DNA from: Endomicrobium sp.
GTDB taxonomy: Bacteria; Elusimicrobiota; Endomicrobiia; Endomicrobiales; Endomicrobiaceae
Direction: 5' to 3'
DNA length: 34,121 nt
Assembly (NCBI GenBank): GCA_031271205.1
Contig: JAISWG010000027.1
Span: forward strand, 1-34,121
The position numbers were made by a program, and so were the translations under genes. The notes under the pieces are model-generated. The model did no database searches, was not told the DNA's origin, and saw nothing but the letters and a program-made list of their open reading frames with translations. This document shows positions 9,100-15,810 of this stretch, piece after piece. Each line of letters begins with the position of its first letter. Positions within the stretch are counted from its first letter, which is position 1.

Positions 9100-9816
9100 T
9101 TACATTTCTGCCATTTCTATAGAGCGTCTCAAATTAAAATTTTTTTTATATAATGCACTGCCAACAACTGCCCCGAAAACACCACATTGTTTAAGCTTAA
9201 TAACATCACCTTCTGTCTTTATACCTCCCGAAGCTATAACTTTAATGTTTTTTTTCAAAAGCTTTTTTATTCCTTTATAGTCAGGTCCATAAAACATCCC
9301 ATCCCTGGAAATGTCTGTATATAAAATATTTTGAACACCTATCTCTTCAAGGTTGTCAGCTAACCTAAATGCATCAATAGAAGTCATATCGTTCCAGCCA
9401 TTAACAGCAACTTTCCCATCTTTTGCATCAACAGCAACAATAATTCTTTCTTTACCGTATTTTTTTATAGATTCTTTTACAATCTTAATATTAGAAACAG
9501 CAAGAGTGCCTAGCACTACCTTTGCAGCTCCTAGACTAAAGATTTCAGATATTTTTTCTAAACTTCTTATACCTCCACCTACATGTACAGATATATTTAC
9601 GACACTGCATATCTGTTTAATAGTTTCTTTGTTTTTACCTTCCCCGCTAAAAGCGCCATCTAAGTCAACAACATGTATGCACTTTGCTCCGCAGGATTCC
9701 CATATTTTTGCAGCGTCTACAGGATCATTAGAATAAATAATTTCATGCTTTATCTTTCCCTGTTTTAATCTTACAGAATTACCTTGTCTTATATCTATAG
9801 CTGGGATTAAAATCAT
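9100..9816 (-). CDS. hisA: ProFAR isomerase HisA
   Basis: HisA isomerises ProFAR to PRFAR (fourth step of histidine synthesis). It is a (beta/alpha)8 barrel of 238 aa. The catalytic Asp of the first strand is in IPAIDIRQG, the second in TDISRDGM. The phosphate-binding loops HVGGGIRS and [10 protein letters not shown] are intact, as is the [14 protein letters not shown] region. It is the last gene of the his operon. Its start overlaps the 3' end of hisIE by 38 bases, with GGAGGG upstream of the ATG. I see no strong terminator between its stop and the groES promoter region. Confidence 0.96.
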
Positions 9817-10441
9817 TTTCCCTCCATTTTTTTTTATTACCCTTAATAGCGTAGCGTTCTTGGAGCTTAATACTTATGTCTTTTAAATTTATGTCTTTAT
9901 TTTGCATCAAAACAAGAATATGATAGATTAAATCGCATATTTCGTCAATCAAATCATTTTTATTTTCATTTTTTGCAGCAATAATAATTTCTGAAGATTC
10001 TTCTCCTATTTTTTTGCAAATTTTATCAATCCCTTCAGCAAGCAAATAATTTGTATAAGAATTTTCAACCGGATTTTTTACCCTATCTAAAATACGATAA
10101 CAAATAATTTCAATTATATTTTTTTGGAAATTGCAAGCAACTATTTCATTAAAGAAACATGATAATTCTCCTGTATGACACGCAACTCCTGACTGTTCCA
10201 CCAAAATCAAAAGAGCATCGCCATCACAATCTGAATATATGCCTTTTACTTTTTGAACACATCCTGAAGTTTCTCCTTTGTGCCACAACTTCTTTCTGCT
10301 ACGCGAATAAAAATATGTTTCGCCTTTTTCAAGCGTAAGGTTATAACTTTCTTTGTTCATATACGCTAACATCAATATTTCTCTTGTTTCATAATCCTGA
10401 ATAATAGTCGCAATTAAAGGCGTTTTACTAAAATCTATCAT
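9779..10441 (-). CDS. hisI: bifunctional PR-AMP cyclohydrolase / PR-ATP pyrophosphatase HisIE
   Basis: This fusion carries out steps two and three of histidine synthesis. The HisI part (about 1-110) has [29 protein letters not shown] and the metal-binding [13 protein letters not shown]...GVACHTG with the catalytic Cys residues. The HisE part (about 125-205) has [16 protein letters not shown] and [16 protein letters not shown], the MazG-like acidic helices that bind Mg. At 220 aa it is the normal size of the fused enzyme. It overlaps hisF by 14 bases and hisA by 38, so it is translationally coupled at both ends. Confidence 0.96.
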
Positions 10442-11192
10442 TGTTATATCCTCTTCTTGTAGGAATTCTATTTTTAATCATTTCTCGTTTTATATCATAT
10501 ATGGTTGTAGCTTTATAATGCAATATAGATGCTACCAAAGCACCGGAACATTTTGTTTTTTTAAACATATTAACAATATCAAATACGTTTCCGCATCCTC
10601 CGCTTGCAATAATGGGCATATTTATGCACCTTGCAACTTTCTTCAATGTTCTAATATCATATCCTATCTTTGTTCCATCTGTATTTATTGATGTAAGCAA
10701 AACTTCTCCTACACCTAAAACTTCGCATTTTTTTACCCAATCGGTTAGTTTTATACCAGTATTAAGCCGACCTCCATTTATAAACACATTTTCTCCGTCG
10801 GTATCAATAGCAGCAACAACACATTGTGTTCCAAATTCTCTTACCGCTTGCAAAATAATATCTGGATTTTTAACCGCTGCTGAATTTATAGAAATTTTAT
10901 CTGCACCCAAACGCAAAATACTACGAAAATCATCTATTGAGCATATGCCTCCCCCGATTGTTAATGGTATTCTTAACGCCGTTGATGCTCTTTTTAATAT
11001 ATCACCTGCTATAGCACGGTTCTCGTATGTAGCCGAAATATCCAAAAACACTATTTCATCAGCTCCCTGTTTTTCATATTCTTTTGCAAGAATAACGGGA
11101 TCTCCTACATCAGTTAGATTTGAAAAATTAACGCCCTTTACAACTTTCCCATCTTTTATATCTAGACATGGAATTATTCTTTTTTTAAGCAT
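10428..11192 (-). CDS. hisF: imidazole glycerol phosphate synthase, cyclase subunit HisF
   Basis: HisF closes the imidazole ring of PRFAR using ammonia channelled from HisH, releasing IGP and AICAR. It is 254 aa, a (beta/alpha)8 barrel. Catalytic Asp11 is in [15 protein letters not shown] and Asp130 in [22 protein letters not shown] and IASGGCGN are the phosphate loops. It overlaps hisH by 19 bases, as expected for subunits of one heterodimer. The AICAR produced is the substrate of PurH, whose gene is at 23.5 kb, linking the two pathways. Confidence 0.97.
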
Positions 11193-11761
11193 TTATATCC
11201 CTCTATATTACAATACCATTCCTTCAAAAGTTTAAGTCCATATTTTCCACTTTTTTCAGGATGAAATTGAAATCCAGTTACATTTTTGTATTTGACTATA
11301 GCTGGTATTCTAATTCCACCATAGTCTACATAAGAAACTATACATTCAGATACAATGTTTGCCATGTATGAATGAACAAAATATACGTCTTCTCCAGTAT
11401 TTGATAAACTGTTCCAACCTATATGAGGAAGTCTTGCATTAACAGGTATTTTTATAACTTCACCTTTTATAAACCCCAAACCTTCGGTTTCTTCGCCTTC
11501 ATAACTTCTTTCAAATAAAATTTGCATACCTAAACATATTCCTAAAATAGGCTTATCAATATTCTTTAAAATATCAAATAAACCCGCTGTCTTTAAATTT
11601 TCTATAGCAGCTTTAAAAGCACCAACTCCTGGTATAATAACAGCATCGCATAAAGCCACTGTTTTGATATCATTTACTAGTTTAGCTTCAATGCCTAGTT
11701 CTCTGCAAGCCGACAATAAACTTTCTGTGTTGCCAGCTCTATAGTCAATAATTGCTACCAC
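11174..11761 (-). CDS. hisH: imidazole glycerol phosphate synthase, glutaminase subunit HisH
   Basis: HisH is the class I glutamine amidotransferase that feeds ammonia to HisF. It is 195 aa. The catalytic triad is complete: Cys76 in LGICLGMQ, and His167 and Glu169 in FQFHPEKSG. The PGVGAFKAAIENL oxyanion-strand region is present. It starts with GTG, whose G is the last base of the hisB TAG stop (TAGTG), so it depends on hisB translation. Confidence 0.96.
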   Translation of the reverse strand: MVAIIDYRAGNTESLLSACRELGIEAKLVNDIKTVALCDAVIIPGVGAFKAAIENLKTAGLFDILKNIDKPILGICLGMQILFERSYEGEETEGLGFIKGEVIKIPVNARLPHIGWNSLSNTGEDVYFVHSYMANIVSECIVSYVDYGGIRIPAIVKYKNVTGFQFHPEKSGKYGLKLLKEWYCNIEGYKCLKKE

Positions 11762-12339
11762 TATATAACTCCCTTTGAAGAATTTATTCTGTTTCTGATT
11801 TTCTCAATCGCTTGCCATAACGCACAACCAAAACCTTTGAAAATAGCCTCTATTATATGATGAGTATTTTTCCCGTATTCAAGATTAACGTGAAGTGTTA
11901 TCGCCGCATTTACAACAACGGCTCTAAAAAATTCTTCAACTAATTCAGTTTCAAAATCTCCTATACGTTCAGCTGGGAAACTCGCATTAAAAACCAAATA
12001 ATCACGCCCTGAAATATCTAAATTCACATTAACTAAAGTTTCATCCATAGGTAAAAAACAACTGCCAAATCGAGCTATTCCCTTTTTATCCCTTAAAGAA
12101 TTTTTTAGAGCTTGTCCAAAAACTATACCAATATCTTCAACAATGTGATGTGCGCCAGTATTTAAATCCCCTGTACAAAAAAGCTTAATGTTAAAGTTAG
12201 CATAAAAAGCTAAAATATTAAGCATATGATCAAAAAAACCAATTCCACTACTTCCTTTAAACTCACCTGTTCCGTCCAGATTTAATTTTATTTCTATTTT
12301 TGTCTCTTTAGTGTTACGTTTAATATCACATATTCTCAT
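11761..12339 (-). CDS. hisB: imidazoleglycerol-phosphate dehydratase HisB (monofunctional)
   Basis: HisB dehydrates IGP to imidazole acetol phosphate. It is 192 aa, the monofunctional form without the histidinol-phosphate phosphatase domain found in enterobacterial HisB. Mn-binding motifs are intact: FFDHML, AHHIVEDIGI, DISGRDYL and THHIIEAIFKGFG. It overlaps hisD by 4 bases (ATGA) and hisH by 1 base. Because the phosphatase is absent, a separate histidinol-phosphatase must act. None is visible in the window. The nearby HAD phosphatase GmhB belongs to the same family group but has the heptose-type zinc motif. Confidence 0.96.
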   Translation of the reverse strand: MRICDIKRNTKETKIEIKLNLDGTGEFKGSSGIGFFDHMLNILAFYANFNIKLFCTGDLNTGAHHIVEDIGIVFGQALKNSLRDKKGIARFGSCFLPMDETLVNVNLDISGRDYLVFNASFPAERIGDFETELVEEFFRAVVVNAAITLHVNLEYGKNTHHIIEAIFKGFGCALWQAIEKIRNRINSSKGVI

Positions 12340-13610
12340 TTATAACTCCTTTTAAAACGAATATTTGCCGCAATTGCATGAGCATCTAAACCTTCTAACA
12401 AAGCAAAAGACGTGATGTCTTCTTTAAATTCCAACAATACATTTTTCGGATAATAACTATATGAAATTCTCTTTACAAAATCATATACTCCTAAAGGCGA
12501 AGCAAACCTTGCCGTACCTGCCGTTGGCAATACATGATTAGTCCCACCAACATAATCACCAAGCACCTCAGGAGAATTACATCCCAAAAAAACTGTACCA
12601 GCATTTTTAACTTTAGCCAGCATTTCCAGAGGTTTTTTAGTCATTATTTCTAAATGTTCCGGAGCAATTAAGTTTGATATTTCAAAAATGTTGTTAATAG
12701 ATTTTGCTATGATGCATATTCCGTTATTTTCTAATGCTTTTTTTGCTATTCCTTTACGCTTAAGCTTTGGAAGCTGTAATTCTAGCTCCTTTTTAACTTT
12801 TTTGTATAAGCTCAAATCAGTTGTAACTAAAATACTCCTTGACATTTTATCATGTTCAGCTTGGCTTAGGAGATCCGCCGCAATATACTCCGGTTTAGAG
12901 CTAGAATCTGCAGCTATTAAAATTTCTGAAGGTCCAGCTATCATATCTATATCAACTACTCCAAACAACAACTTCTTTGCAGTTGCCACATAAACATTGC
13001 CTGGACCTACTATTTTGTCCACTTTTGGAATACTGCGAGTACCATACGCCGCTGCTGCAACAGCTTGCACACCTCCTATCTTGTAAATTTCAGTTACACC
13101 ACAAATAGCAGCTGCAGCTAAGATAAAATTTTCAATTTTTCCATCAGATTTTACAGGTGTAAACATAACGACATTTCTGACACCAGCAAGTTTTGCCGGA
13201 ATCGCATTCATTAGAACTGTTGAAGGATATACTGCTGAGCCACCCGGAACGTAAATAGCTACACGCTCTAAAGCTCTTATAATCTGCCCCATAATAACAC
13301 CATTTTCTTTATAGATAGAATAAGAATTTTCTATTTGTCTTTTATGAAATTCTTCAATTTGTATCTTTGCTCTTTTAAAAATATGCAATATGTTTTTATC
13401 AACTATCTTCAATGCATTCTCTATTTCTTCGTTTTTTACTTTTATACTTCTGCCATTAAAGCCATCAAATTCTTTTGCATAAGATAAAACCGCATTGTCT
13501 CCAAACCGACGAATATTGTCAATTATTTTTTGAACAGATTTTTCTATCTTGTTATCACGTGTATTTTTTACTGCCAATTCTTTTGAATTATATTTAACTA
13601 GTTTTAACAT
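12336..13610 (-). CDS. hisD: histidinol dehydrogenase HisD
   Basis: HisD is the zinc enzyme oxidising histidinol to histidine with 2 NAD+, the final step. It is 424 aa. Conserved regions are YVPGGSAVYPSTVLMNAIPA, KIVGPGNVYVATAKKLLFG, DMIAGPSEILI, the zinc ligands in LLSQAEHDKM, APEHLEIM with the catalytic Glu/His, and the C-terminal EGLDAHAIAAN zinc His. It overlaps hisG by 7 bases and hisB by 4. As in many his operons, it follows hisG directly, although it acts last. Confidence 0.97.
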   Translation of the reverse strand: MLKLVKYNSKELAVKNTRDNKIEKSVQKIIDNIRRFGDNAVLSYAKEFDGFNGRSIKVKNEEIENALKIVDKNILHIFKRAKIQIEEFHKRQIENSYSIYKENGVIMGQIIRALERVAIYVPGGSAVYPSTVLMNAIPAKLAGVRNVVMFTPVKSDGKIENFILAAAAICGVTEIYKIGGVQAVAAAAYGTRSIPKVDKIVGPGNVYVATAKKLLFGVVDIDMIAGPSEILIAADSSSKPEYIAADLLSQAEHDKMSRSILVTTDLSLYKKVKKELELQLPKLKRKGIAKKALENNGICIIAKSINNIFEISNLIAPEHLEIMTKKPLEMLAKVKNAGTVFLGCNSPEVLGDYVGGTNHVLPTAGTARFASPLGVYDFVKRISYSYYPKNVLLEFKEDITSFALLEGLDAHAIAANIRFKRSYK

Positions 13611-14206
13611 AGGTATTTCCTCAACTTTTCCGTAAAATTATACAACGATTTCAATTCAATGCTATTAGAGTTGCCTATAAGTACTGCACTTATATCACAA
13701 ATCTTTTCTATAACATCTAATCCATTGGCTTTTAGCGTATTGCCACTTTGAACAATATCAACTATACCATCAGCAATATTTAAAATGGGGGCAAGTTCGA
13801 CTGATCCTTCTATCCTTAAAATTTTTGGATATTTGCTCTTTTTTGCAAAAAATTTTCTTGCTACATTCGGATATTTTGAAGCTATTACATTTGCAGTTTT
13901 AAAATATGAAAACCCAGCTAAAGCAAAATAACATTTTCCAATTTTCAAATCTAACAGCTCATTATAAATTTCTCTATCGTTTTCAATAATTACATCTTTA
14001 CCAACAACTGCTAAATCTACAATATCTAAATCTATAAATCTCAAAGTATCATTCGACTTTGAAAATATAAACTCTATATCGTCTTTTGATTTTACAAACA
14101 AACGCCTTCCTTTATCACGAATTGATACGCTATCAAAACCTGCTCTGTTAAGCAATCCAACAAACTCTTCTTCAATGCGTCCTTTTGTTACTGCAATTCT
14201 AAGCAT
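13604..14206 (-). CDS. hisG: ATP phosphoribosyltransferase, short catalytic form HisG(S)
   Basis: HisG condenses ATP with PRPP, the committed and usually feedback-inhibited step of histidine synthesis. It is 200 aa: MLRIAVTKGRIEEEFVGLL at the start, DLAVVGKDVI, GSVELAPILNIADGIVDIV and the PRPP loop VQSGNTLKANGL. It ends after the second catalytic lobe, so the C-terminal ACT-like regulatory domain of the long form is absent. In characterised bacteria this short form needs HisZ, a HisRS-like subunit, for activity and histidine sensing. No hisZ is in this window. GGGAG precedes the ATG, only a few bases after the attenuator's T run. Confidence 0.95.
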   Translation of the reverse strand: MLRIAVTKGRIEEEFVGLLNRAGFDSVSIRDKGRRLFVKSKDDIEFIFSKSNDTLRFIDLDIVDLAVVGKDVIIENDREIYNELLDLKIGKCYFALAGFSYFKTANVIASKYPNVARKFFAKKSKYPKILRIEGSVELAPILNIADGIVDIVQSGNTLKANGLDVIEKICDISAVLIGNSNSIELKSLYNFTEKLRKYLC

Positions 14207-14230: not shown

Positions 14231-14271
14231 AATAAAAAAGCCGTATGGTTTAAACCAAACCCACACAGCTT
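14231..14271 (-). terminator. his operon attenuator (rho-independent terminator upstream of hisG)
   Basis: On the minus strand AAGCTGTGTG-GGTTT-GGTTT-AAACC-ATACGGCTT forms a long two-part stem (about 14 pairs with G-U and one bulge), followed directly by TTTTTTATTTT. It sits 25 bases before the hisG ATG and after the leader ORF, so it can only act on transcripts entering the his operon. Its left arm is shared with an alternative pairing. Confidence 0.82.
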
Positions 14272-14289
14272 AAAGATTTATATAGCAAT

Positions 14290-14320
14290 GTAGGCGCAAG
14301 AAGGCAACACCTGCGCCTAC
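14290..14320 (-). promoter_or_regulatory. his leader hairpin that competes with alternative pairings
   Basis: GTAGGCGCA-GGTGTTGCCTTCT-TGCGCCTAC is a perfect 9-bp GC-rich stem between the leader ORF and the attenuator. Its left arm can instead pair with TGCGCTAAAG at the end of the leader ORF (14334-14343). Its right arm (CCTACATTGC, 14285-14294) can instead pair 9 of 10 with GCTGTGTGGG (14260-14269), the left arm of the terminator. These exclusive options are the architecture expected of translation-coupled attenuation. Confidence 0.7.
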
Positions 14321-14335
14321 TGTAAAGTTCATACT

Positions 14336-14395
14336 TTAGCGCAAATGTCGCTCATCATGACGATGCAATACTGTAAACATTACTTTGTTAAACAT
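14336..14395 (-). CDS. his operon leader peptide (HisL-like)
   Basis: A 19-codon ORF reads MFNKVMFTVLHRHDERHLR, stop TAA. Within codons 11-17, three of seven are His (CAT) and two are Arg, with a further Arg at codon 19. That is a strong local enrichment just before the attenuator. GGGTGATT precedes the ATG at proper spacing. It begins about 36 bases after the predicted transcription start. Leader peptides rich in the end-product amino acid regulate enterobacterial his operons (E. coli HisL has seven His in a row). Here the codons are interspersed rather than consecutive. The peptide itself probably has no function beyond ribosome positioning. The ORF is too short for the track. Confidence 0.72.
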   Translation of the reverse strand: MFNKVMFTVLHRHDERHLR

Positions 14396-14437
14396 CTAAT
14401 CACCCAATTATTTAATTTACTTCTTATACACCACTGG

Positions 14438-14466
14438 AGTATAATCTTTATTTCAAAACTTGTCAA
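14438..14466 (-). promoter_or_regulatory. sigma-70 promoter of the his operon
   Basis: TTGACA (14461-14466) and TATACT (14438-14443) on the minus strand are 17 bases apart, an almost perfect consensus promoter. The start near 14431 gives a leader RNA of about 225 bases before hisG. Confidence 0.8.
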
Positions 14467-14514: not shown

Positions 14515-15000
14515 AGAAAAAAACAGCACGCCAATATTGCGACTGGCTCCACATCCGAAGATTATCGTTTTTAGTTCAATATCAACTTTTAAAACCTTTG
14601 CTTTTAAATTTCTCCAACAGAAATAACTTCATGCAAATTTGAAACAAATAAGATTTATTTCATTGCTGAACTGAACAATTAAGGCCTTTTCTAAGAGATC
14701 AACATACCGCTTTTTAATCTTGTATAAATACCGTTAGAGTTTTCACGAGTTTTAAATAAATCCCAGTCTTTCAAATATCTCTCGTTATTTAAATAAGCCC
14801 CTATATACCGTAAATTTAAGAATTGCAATATTATGATAGTCCCATAAATCTCTTGTGCTAAACTTTAATTTTGTTTCAAAAGCGTAAAAACCAGCAATAT
14901 CATTGTTAAACTTCATAATACTTTCGACCATAACTACTTCGTTTTGAGAAAGACTTACATCAAATAAATTTGTCGATTTTATTGCAAAATCCCAGCGGCT
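14515..15000 (-). pseudogene. decayed gene, possibly S1-domain RNA-binding protein
   Basis: The minus strand has a long protein-like stretch without a start: LSQNEVVMVESIMKFNNDIA, then FETKLKFSTRDLWDYHNIAI. After frameshifts it continues with NNERYLKDWDLFKTRENSNG, RLKSGMLIS and finally HEVISVGEI plus KAKVLKVDIELKTIIFG. The last block resembles the end of an S1 repeat (pattern HPSE.v.vGd.vkAKVLkvD.e...i.LG). The SGMLISL-K-GL segment before it fits the 'GG.vVdlG' strand. It might therefore be an rpsA-like or other S1-domain relic. At least three frame changes and several stops rule out function. The family assignment is tentative, while decayed coding DNA is well supported. Confidence 0.5.
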
Positions 15001-15320
15001 TTTTATTTATCATAACCGCAAAAGTCACTCTTTTTAGTATGAAAACAACACAAAAACAAATTCCAAAGTAGAGTTTTATTAGCAACCAGTATTTGAAAAT
15101 ATCAGTTCTCAATGCCATCATCATATTTTAATTCTATAACTAAAATTTGTTTTCTTTCGCAAGGCACAAACAATTATAATAATGCTAATTGTATGCGTAC
15201 TGACATGAAATATTTTCAAATTTATCGTACTTGTACCACTGCACTCTATATCAACAAGTTGAAAAACTTTCATGATAGTAAAATAAGCTATCAAGGACAC
15301 AAGCAAATCTTATAAAGATA
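15001..15320 (-). other. probable decayed coding DNA, hydrophobic fragments
   Basis: Two short minus-strand readings contain hydrophobic segments: one beginning MALRTDIFKYWLLIKLYFGI near 15118, and the track ORF 15121..15306 with a run of isoleucines. Neither has a convincing ribosome binding site or a recognisable domain, and they lie between two relics. They could be parts of the neighbouring pilin-like or S1-like relics. I do not call a gene. Confidence 0.3.
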
Positions 15321-15321
15321 A

Positions 15322-15406
15322 ACTGCAAACAAGACTTTTGTGCAATATAAACCCCATATTATTACTGCAACAAATCTACCACTGTAAAGCCGCGTTCAAC
15401 ACGCAT
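15322..15406 (-). pseudogene. type IV pilin-like N-terminus relic
   Basis: From the ATG at 15406 the minus strand reads MRVERGFTVVDLL. After a one-base frame change it continues AVIIWGLYCTKVLFAV. This mirrors the prepilin leader and N-terminal helix GFTLVELLVVVIIIGIL, with the Gly-Phe processing site, Thr and a hydrophobic helix, but with Asp in place of the near-invariant Glu5. No body of a pilin follows in frame. Type IV pilin-like genes and remnants are common in this kind of genome. The match is short, so this is moderate evidence only. Confidence 0.42.
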
Positions 15407-15589
15407 AAAATTTACGATTTTATATGTTTTCTTTTTGCGCTTAACACATCACAAAGTAAATGTAGATATATTCTAATCTACATTTATCAAATACTATCTG
15501 ACTATCTAATTATTTAAATAACAGGTAAATTTCCTGTTCACCAAAAACACAAATTAAGGTTTTACCACCTAAAACCCCTAACTATTTAG

Positions 15590-15810
15590 AATTTTCGTTA
15601 AATAAATACTCGACTCCATTGCAAAACAATTAAACTCATCTAATTTTATTTTAACTTTTTTCTCTTCATCAAGCAAAGATTTAAACATTGCATTAAGATC
15701 AAAATAAAACCTAAAACCTTTTTGTTGCAGCAGATAGAAGTGTGTTACGCACTTTTCTCTTAATTATATTTTTTAAACTTTTTATCTCAAGCTCAAGTAT
15801 TACATCTAAA
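15590..15810 (-). pseudogene. unidentified decayed gene fragment
   Basis: The minus strand reads DVILELEIKSLKNIIKRKVR and on to LLSAATKRF. With one frame change it continues RFYFDLNAMFKSLLDEEKKV and KIKLDEFNCFAMESSIYLTK, about 73 codons in all. Amphipathic and charged composition marks it as former coding DNA. I do not recognise the family. It lies downstream (in transcription sense) of gmhB and is followed by the pilin-like and S1-like relics, so the whole 14.5-15.8 kb stretch is a graveyard of several genes. Confidence 0.45.

What the first reader, a model, noticed from the sequence alone, without database searches (positions are those of the whole stretch)
14231..14466. A translation-coupled histidine attenuator in front of a full his operon
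Directly visible are a TTGACA-17-TATACT promoter, a ribosome binding site, and a 19-codon ORF ending ...LHRHDERHLR. A perfect 9-bp hairpin and a rho-independent terminator with a long T run follow, and then hisG. The order is that of enterobacterial hisL attenuation, in a genome that looks like a reduced, non-proteobacterial symbiont. The control codons are interspersed His and Arg rather than a His run. Retention of such fine control in a decaying genome would imply that histidine supply is still tuned to demand. I do not know of a described his leader in this group.
Basis: partly seen in the sequence, partly recalled or inferred. Interest (0 to 1): 0.75.

Follow-up and report, generated by a model that had tools for sequence, protein, structure and literature searches.

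The report
Histidine attenuator on transferred his operon
A termite-gut symbiont (Endomicrobium lineage, phylum Elusimicrobiota) carries a conserved RNA switch, built from a short histidine-rich leader peptide and alternative hairpins, in front of a histidine operon apparently acquired from a Clostridia-like donor, and no other histidine feedback control was found in these genomes.

Summary
On the minus strand, 14466-14207, lie a TTGACA-17-TATACT promoter, a 19-codon ORF (MFNKVMFTVLHRHDERHLR), a 9-bp hairpin, a terminator and hisG. The same leader occurs before hisG in exactly the 5 of 42 same-genus genomes that carry this short-HisG operon. Four have an uninterrupted HHH run, so the window's H-R-H is a one-base derivative (CAT to CGT). 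The RNA is a two-state switch: the 3' end of the ORF (B) can pair over 14 bp with the hairpin's 5' arm (C), freeing the 3' arm (D) to pair with the terminator's 5' arm (E). Masking B gives C:D plus terminator. All five sequences keep both states (98-99% of cells paired; slid controls 27-59%). One compensatory CG-to-UA change falls in D:E. 5/5 real sequences pass a switch test; 47/5000 shuffles do. HisD groups with Clostridia, not with native Elusimicrobiota. HisZ and a HisR/TrpR-type repressor were not found. HisG-S alone is reported to be histidine-insensitive, so the leader may be the only feedback. His leader-peptide attenuators are known in Proteobacteria and Firmicutes; I found none reported for Elusimicrobiota. 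New member of a known kind, unusual evolutionary setting. No RNA evidence was available.

The parts
14438..14466 (-). sigma-70-type promoter, TTGACA (14466-14461), 17 nt, TATACT (14443-14438)
   Evidence: 11/12 consensus; conserved in all five loci. No 5'-end mapping.
14336..14395 (-). hisL-like leader ORF, 19 codons, MFNKVMFTVLHRHDERHLR*
   Evidence: Conserved in five genomes; the only length difference (L032) is a 6-nt, in-frame change.
14357..14365 (-). control codons CAT-CGT-CAT (His11-Arg12-His13); CAT-CAT-CAT or CAT-CAC-CAT in the four relatives
14338..14351 (-). segment B, GCGACATTTGCGCT (3' end of the ORF), pairs with C in the antitermination state
   Evidence: Invariant in five genomes; 14-bp B:C helix
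14304..14320 (-). segment C: GTAGGCGCA (14320-14312) pairs with D; GGCGCAGGTGTTGC (14317-14304) pairs with B
14284..14298 (-). segment D: TGCGCCTAC (14298-14290) pairs with C; CCTACATTGCT (14294-14284) pairs with E
   Evidence: D:E has a compensatory C-G to U-A change in L032
14260..14270 (-). segment E, AGCTGTGTGGG, shared by the antiterminator (D:E) and the terminator (E:F)
14234..14248 (-). segment F, CCATACGGCT (14248-14239), and T run: rho-independent terminator with E
   Evidence: T run conserved in five
13604..14206 (-). hisG, short form (HisG-S, 200 aa)
   Evidence: TIGR00070, PF01634
12336..13610 (-). hisD
   Evidence: TIGR00069
11761..12339 (-). hisB (imidazoleglycerol-phosphate dehydratase only)
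   Evidence: NF002111
11174..11761 (-). hisH
   Evidence: TIGR01855
10428..11192 (-). hisF
   Evidence: TIGR00735
9779..10441 (-). hisIE
   Evidence: NF002747
9100..9816 (-). hisA, last gene of the cluster; groES-groEL follow
   Evidence: TIGR00007

Best explanation
This is a ribosome-mediated transcription attenuator of the his operon. When charged tRNA-His is scarce, the ribosome translating the leader ORF stalls at His codons 11-13. Segment B is then free, B pairs with C, D pairs with E, the terminator cannot form and RNA polymerase reads into hisG. When charged tRNA-His is plentiful, the ribosome reaches the UAA at the end of B and masks B. C then pairs with D, E pairs with F, and transcription ends at the T run. 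Shown here: conservation of ORF, His codons, both sets of helices, promoter and T run, and correct switching in folding calculations. Inferred: transcription, translation, stalling and termination.
For: The leader occurs in exactly the five of 42 same-genus genomes with this HisG-S operon. Leader peptides have HHH in four and HRH in the window, and the only length change is in frame. Terminated state C:D+E:F: 97.9% of cells paired; antitermination state B:C+D:E: 99.2%; partners slid by 1-3 columns: 27-59%. One compensatory change in D:E. Minimum-energy folds of the RNA up to segment E: B exposed gives B:C 13-14/14 and D:E 10/10 in all five; B masked gives C:D 9/9 and D:E 0/10 in four of five. 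Full switch in 5/5 real sequences against 47/5000 shuffles. Neighbouring DNA has decayed: 14550-15810 holds remnants of ORFs that are longer in G026, while the leader is intact.
Against: No RNA-seq, term-seq or reporter data. Only five sequences and one double compensatory change; most variation is one-sided G-C/G-U, and for the antitermination state 114/500 column shuffles reach the covariation score. In static folds of the window, once F is made the terminator stays in the minimum-energy structure even with the ribosome at His11 or His13, so switching there depends on co-transcriptional order. L035 has a weaker terminator and incomplete switching. The thresholds were set after seeing the real values. 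No Rfam His_leader match up to E = 10.
Confidence: 0.88

Rival explanations
1. The leader senses arginine, or arginine and histidine together, because of its interspersed Arg codons.
For: The window peptide has three Arg and three His codons; CGA and CGC in ERHLR are invariant.
Against: In all four relatives the run is HHH, without the interrupting Arg. The invariant Arg codons lie inside RNA segment B, where base pairing explains the conservation. The operon makes histidine only.
Confidence: 0.05
2. A constitutive terminator or processing hairpin that only lowers his expression, with the short ORF a chance frame.
For: His-rich short ORFs are common by chance. In the window and L033 the terminator persists in static folds.
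Against: The ORF is conserved in frame in five genomes with His codons kept, and the D:E antiterminator, useless for a plain terminator, is kept at 100% of pairs with a compensatory change.
Confidence: 0.06
3. A decayed relic: functional in relatives, but the window's copy is drifting, as the H12R change suggests.
For: CAT to CGT within the control run; reduced genome with eroded flanking genes.
Against: The window keeps every pair of B:C (14/14), C:D (9/9) and E:F (10/10), and two His codons at the stall site.
Confidence: 0.15
4. A T-box or riboswitch that binds tRNA or histidine directly.
For: T-box-like RNAs occur elsewhere in this genus.
Against: No Rfam match at the gathering score in the window or loci; no T-box match in the own genome.
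Confidence: 0.02

Closest known systems
hisL attenuator of E. coli and other gammaproteobacteria (Rfam RF00514, His_leader)
   Same: Leader peptide with His codons, alternative B:C/D:E versus C:D/E:F pairings, terminator directly before hisG (architecture of hisL from general knowledge).
   Different: No covariance-model match; shorter His run (3 or 2); no A:B helix identified; different phylum; the controlled operon has HisG-S and no hisC.
His leader-peptide attenuators of Firmicutes (Bacillus cereus group, Peptostreptococcaceae/Lutispora, Erysipelotrichales), PMC9413887; Bacillus hisZ and hisS* leaders, PMC2965389
   Same: Three to five His codons in a row, terminator/antiterminator, his operon, non-proteobacterial; a transfer of operon plus leader is proposed there for Lutispora.
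   Different: Different phylum. Sequences were not compared directly, because the alignments are in supplements that could not be read. No comparable leader was seen upstream of hisG in the sampled Clostridia loci.
HisR (TrpR-family) repressor control of his operons, including Elusimicrobium minutum (PMC9413887)
   Same: Histidine control of a his operon in the same phylum.
   Different: Protein repressor; no TrpR-family gene in any of the 42 same-genus genomes.

Membership tests
Ribosome-mediated amino-acid operon attenuators | Short leader ORF rich in codons of the operon's end product | tested here: met
   HHH in four genomes, HRH in the window
Ribosome-mediated amino-acid operon attenuators | Mutually exclusive terminator and antiterminator helices | tested here: met
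Ribosome-mediated amino-acid operon attenuators | Stop codon placed so that a terminating ribosome masks the segment that starts the antiterminator cascade | tested here: met
   UAA (14338-14336) lies at the 3' end of segment B, overlapping its last base, in all five
Ribosome-mediated amino-acid operon attenuators | Intrinsic terminator with U run between leader ORF and first structural gene | tested here: met
Ribosome-mediated amino-acid operon attenuators | Histidine-dependent read-through in vivo | not testable with these tools
   Needs RNA or reporter experiments
Rfam RF00514 His_leader (proteobacterial hisL) | Covariance-model match | tested here: not met
   Not among matches up to E = 10; none at gathering score
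T-box (RF00230) | Covariance-model match upstream of the operon | tested here: not met
   no match in the own genome

The most novel reading that the evidence does not exclude
After lateral transfer of a Clostridia-like his operon into the Endomicrobium line, hisZ (allosteric histidine sensor) was lost and a leader-peptide attenuator arose or was grafted in its place, so that an intracellular symbiont controls histidine synthesis by this RNA switch alone: regulatory rewiring from protein-based to translation-based feedback during genome reduction.
Probability: 0.35. Interest if true: 0.65.

Novelty: new member of a known kind. Interest (0 to 1): 0.5.

Why it matters
It extends leader-peptide his attenuation to Elusimicrobiota and to an intracellular symbiont of termite-gut flagellates. 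It suggests that a symbiont losing genes still tunes histidine supply. The apparent absence of HisZ and of a HisR/TrpR-type repressor makes the leader the only candidate feedback, which is testable with a reporter. It is a case where an acquired operon sits under a different control from the one usual in its likely source group.

Tried and rejected
Rfam search of window and loci: no hit at gathering score; a weak trpB-motif match (27 bits against a cut-off of 59) reflects only a hairpin plus terminator. Search for further copies of the leader in the genus: none beyond the five (other hits are short and chance-level). His-leader scan of native Elusimicrobiota and Clostridia hisG loci: only chance-like ORFs, none recognised as a leader upstream of hisG (an earlier one-strand version was incomplete). 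hisG upstream of G010, G013 and G032: no leader (a first attempt, read the wrong strand). A first version of the shuffle control used a criterion that four of the five real sequences failed, because segment E makes weak transient pairs in the masked state; after inspecting the folds I replaced it and say so. Column-shuffle covariation is not significant with five sequences.

Full report
What is there. Read on the minus strand, the interval holds TTGACA (14466-14461), 17 nt, TATACT (14443-14438), a 19-codon ORF (14395-14336, MFNKVMFTVLHRHDERHLR), a hairpin with a perfect 9-bp stem (14320-14312 / 14298-14290), a terminator (14270-14261 / 14248-14239 plus T run) and hisG from 14206. The genes that follow are hisG-D-B-H-F-IE-A by NCBIfam and Pfam, then groES-groEL.

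Organism. The window is contig C24 of a 0.61-Mb, about 53% complete genome. Its nearest hisG relatives in GTDB are MAGs named Endomicrobium sp. and Candidatus Endomicrobiellum devescovinae and guadaloupense. These are Elusimicrobiota; Endomicrobiellum comprises the flagellate endosymbionts characterised to date (PMC11257099).

Conservation. Of 42 same-genus genomes, five (own included) carry this short hisG operon and the same five carry the leader; no other match exceeds chance. Peptides: MFNKVMFTVLHRHDERHLR (window), MFKKAMLTILQQHHHNERHLR, MFNKAMFARLHHHYERHLR, MFNMAMFAKLHHHNGRHLR, MFNIAMFAKLHHHNERHLR. The window's Arg12 is one base from His (CGT against CAT). One relative uses CAC in the run, and the only length difference is two whole codons. 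Promoter, T run and hisG Shine-Dalgarno are conserved. Downstream synteny with groES-groEL is shared by all five and upstream gmhB-lpxK by three, the window included, consistent with vertical inheritance after one acquisition.

The switch. The end of the ORF, GCGACATTTGCGCT (B), pairs over 14 bp with GGCGCAGGTGTTGC (C). C also pairs with TGCGCCTAC (D). D, read as CCTACATTGCT, pairs with AGCTGTGTGGG (E) with one constant mismatch, and E pairs with F to make the terminator. Terminated state: 97.9% of cells paired; antitermination state: 99.2%; slid controls 27-59%. L032 has a compensatory CG-to-UA change in D:E while keeping C:D through G-U. When the RNA is folded up to segment E, exposing B gives B:C and D:E in all five, and masking B gives C:D without D:E in four of five; the fifth (L035) is mixed. 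A full-switch criterion is met by 5/5 real and 47/5000 dinucleotide-shuffled tails (thresholds chosen after seeing the real values).

Origin and setting. HisG here is the short form; most relatives have a ~295-aa HisG. Clostridia HisG reaches 51% identity and HisD 54%, against 47% or less for HisD of the native Elusimicrobiota lineage. In a HisD tree eight Endomicrobium rows (the five plus G010, G013, G032) form one clade (100/100) separated from 17 native Elusimicrobiota (100/99) and lying with Clostridia. The exact sister is unresolved and Clostridia were sampled most deeply, so the donor is only 'Clostridia-like'. G010, G013 and G032 have a related operon but no leader. The Clostridium locus inspected (L036) has a hisZ-type gene overlapping hisG (named from its position and the PF13393 match without a HisS assignment having been tested). 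In the Endomicrobium genomes there is one PF13393 protein per genome (in G011 split into two matches of one frame); it was confirmed as HisS by TIGR00442 in G026 and G009, and in the own genome it looks the same by eye. No TrpR/HisR-family gene was found in 42 genomes. HisG-S alone is reported to be active and insensitive to histidine (PMC9734150). The leader is therefore the only candidate histidine feedback detected; this is inference, since genomes are incomplete and other controls could exist.

Literature. His leader-peptide attenuators are established in Proteobacteria and predicted in several Firmicutes (PMC9413887; PMC2965389). For Elusimicrobiota the held literature reports only HisR in Elusimicrobium minutum. 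The genome study of Endomicrobia (PMC11257099) does not contain the word stem 'attenuat' in its main text. Searches pairing the group's names with attenuation terms gave no report of a leader; the library is open-access only.

Verdict. Real and very likely functional ribosome-mediated his attenuator; a known kind of mechanism, apparently not reported for this phylum, placed on an acquired and HisZ-less operon.

Noticed in passing
window 14550-15810 (-): Directly upstream of the his promoter lie decayed fragments matching longer ORFs in relative G026 (L105), which by eye look like a cation-efflux transporter, a Tex-like protein and a further protein; the leader is intact next to this graveyard. 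The identities were not tested against a family library.
   Followed up: partly
L162, L163, L164 (G041, G010, G025): T-box-like RNAs (RF00230, best per genome E 1e-12 to 1e-19, below the gathering score) in 10 of 42 same-genus genomes; in L164 the downstream ORF is TrpE-like (TIGR00564 the best hit, just under its cut-off), and L162 and L163 have similar ORFs. T-boxes in Elusimicrobiota would merit a check.
   Followed up: partly
G000, G009, G011, G026, G035: Short-form HisG without a detectable HisZ in any of five genomes, including two that are 92-94% complete.
   Followed up: yes
G010, G013, G032 (L008, L010, L012): Related Clostridia-like his operon with a divergent short HisG (hisC next to hisD in G010 and G032), but no leader upstream of hisG.
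   Followed up: partly
window 9100-14206 (-): Gene order G-D-B-H-F-IE-A, with hisA at the end of the cluster rather than next to hisH.
   Followed up: no
G123 (L049, uncultured bacterium): One genome bin with matches to both a short-form (210-aa frame) and a long-form (309-aa frame) HisG.
   Followed up: no
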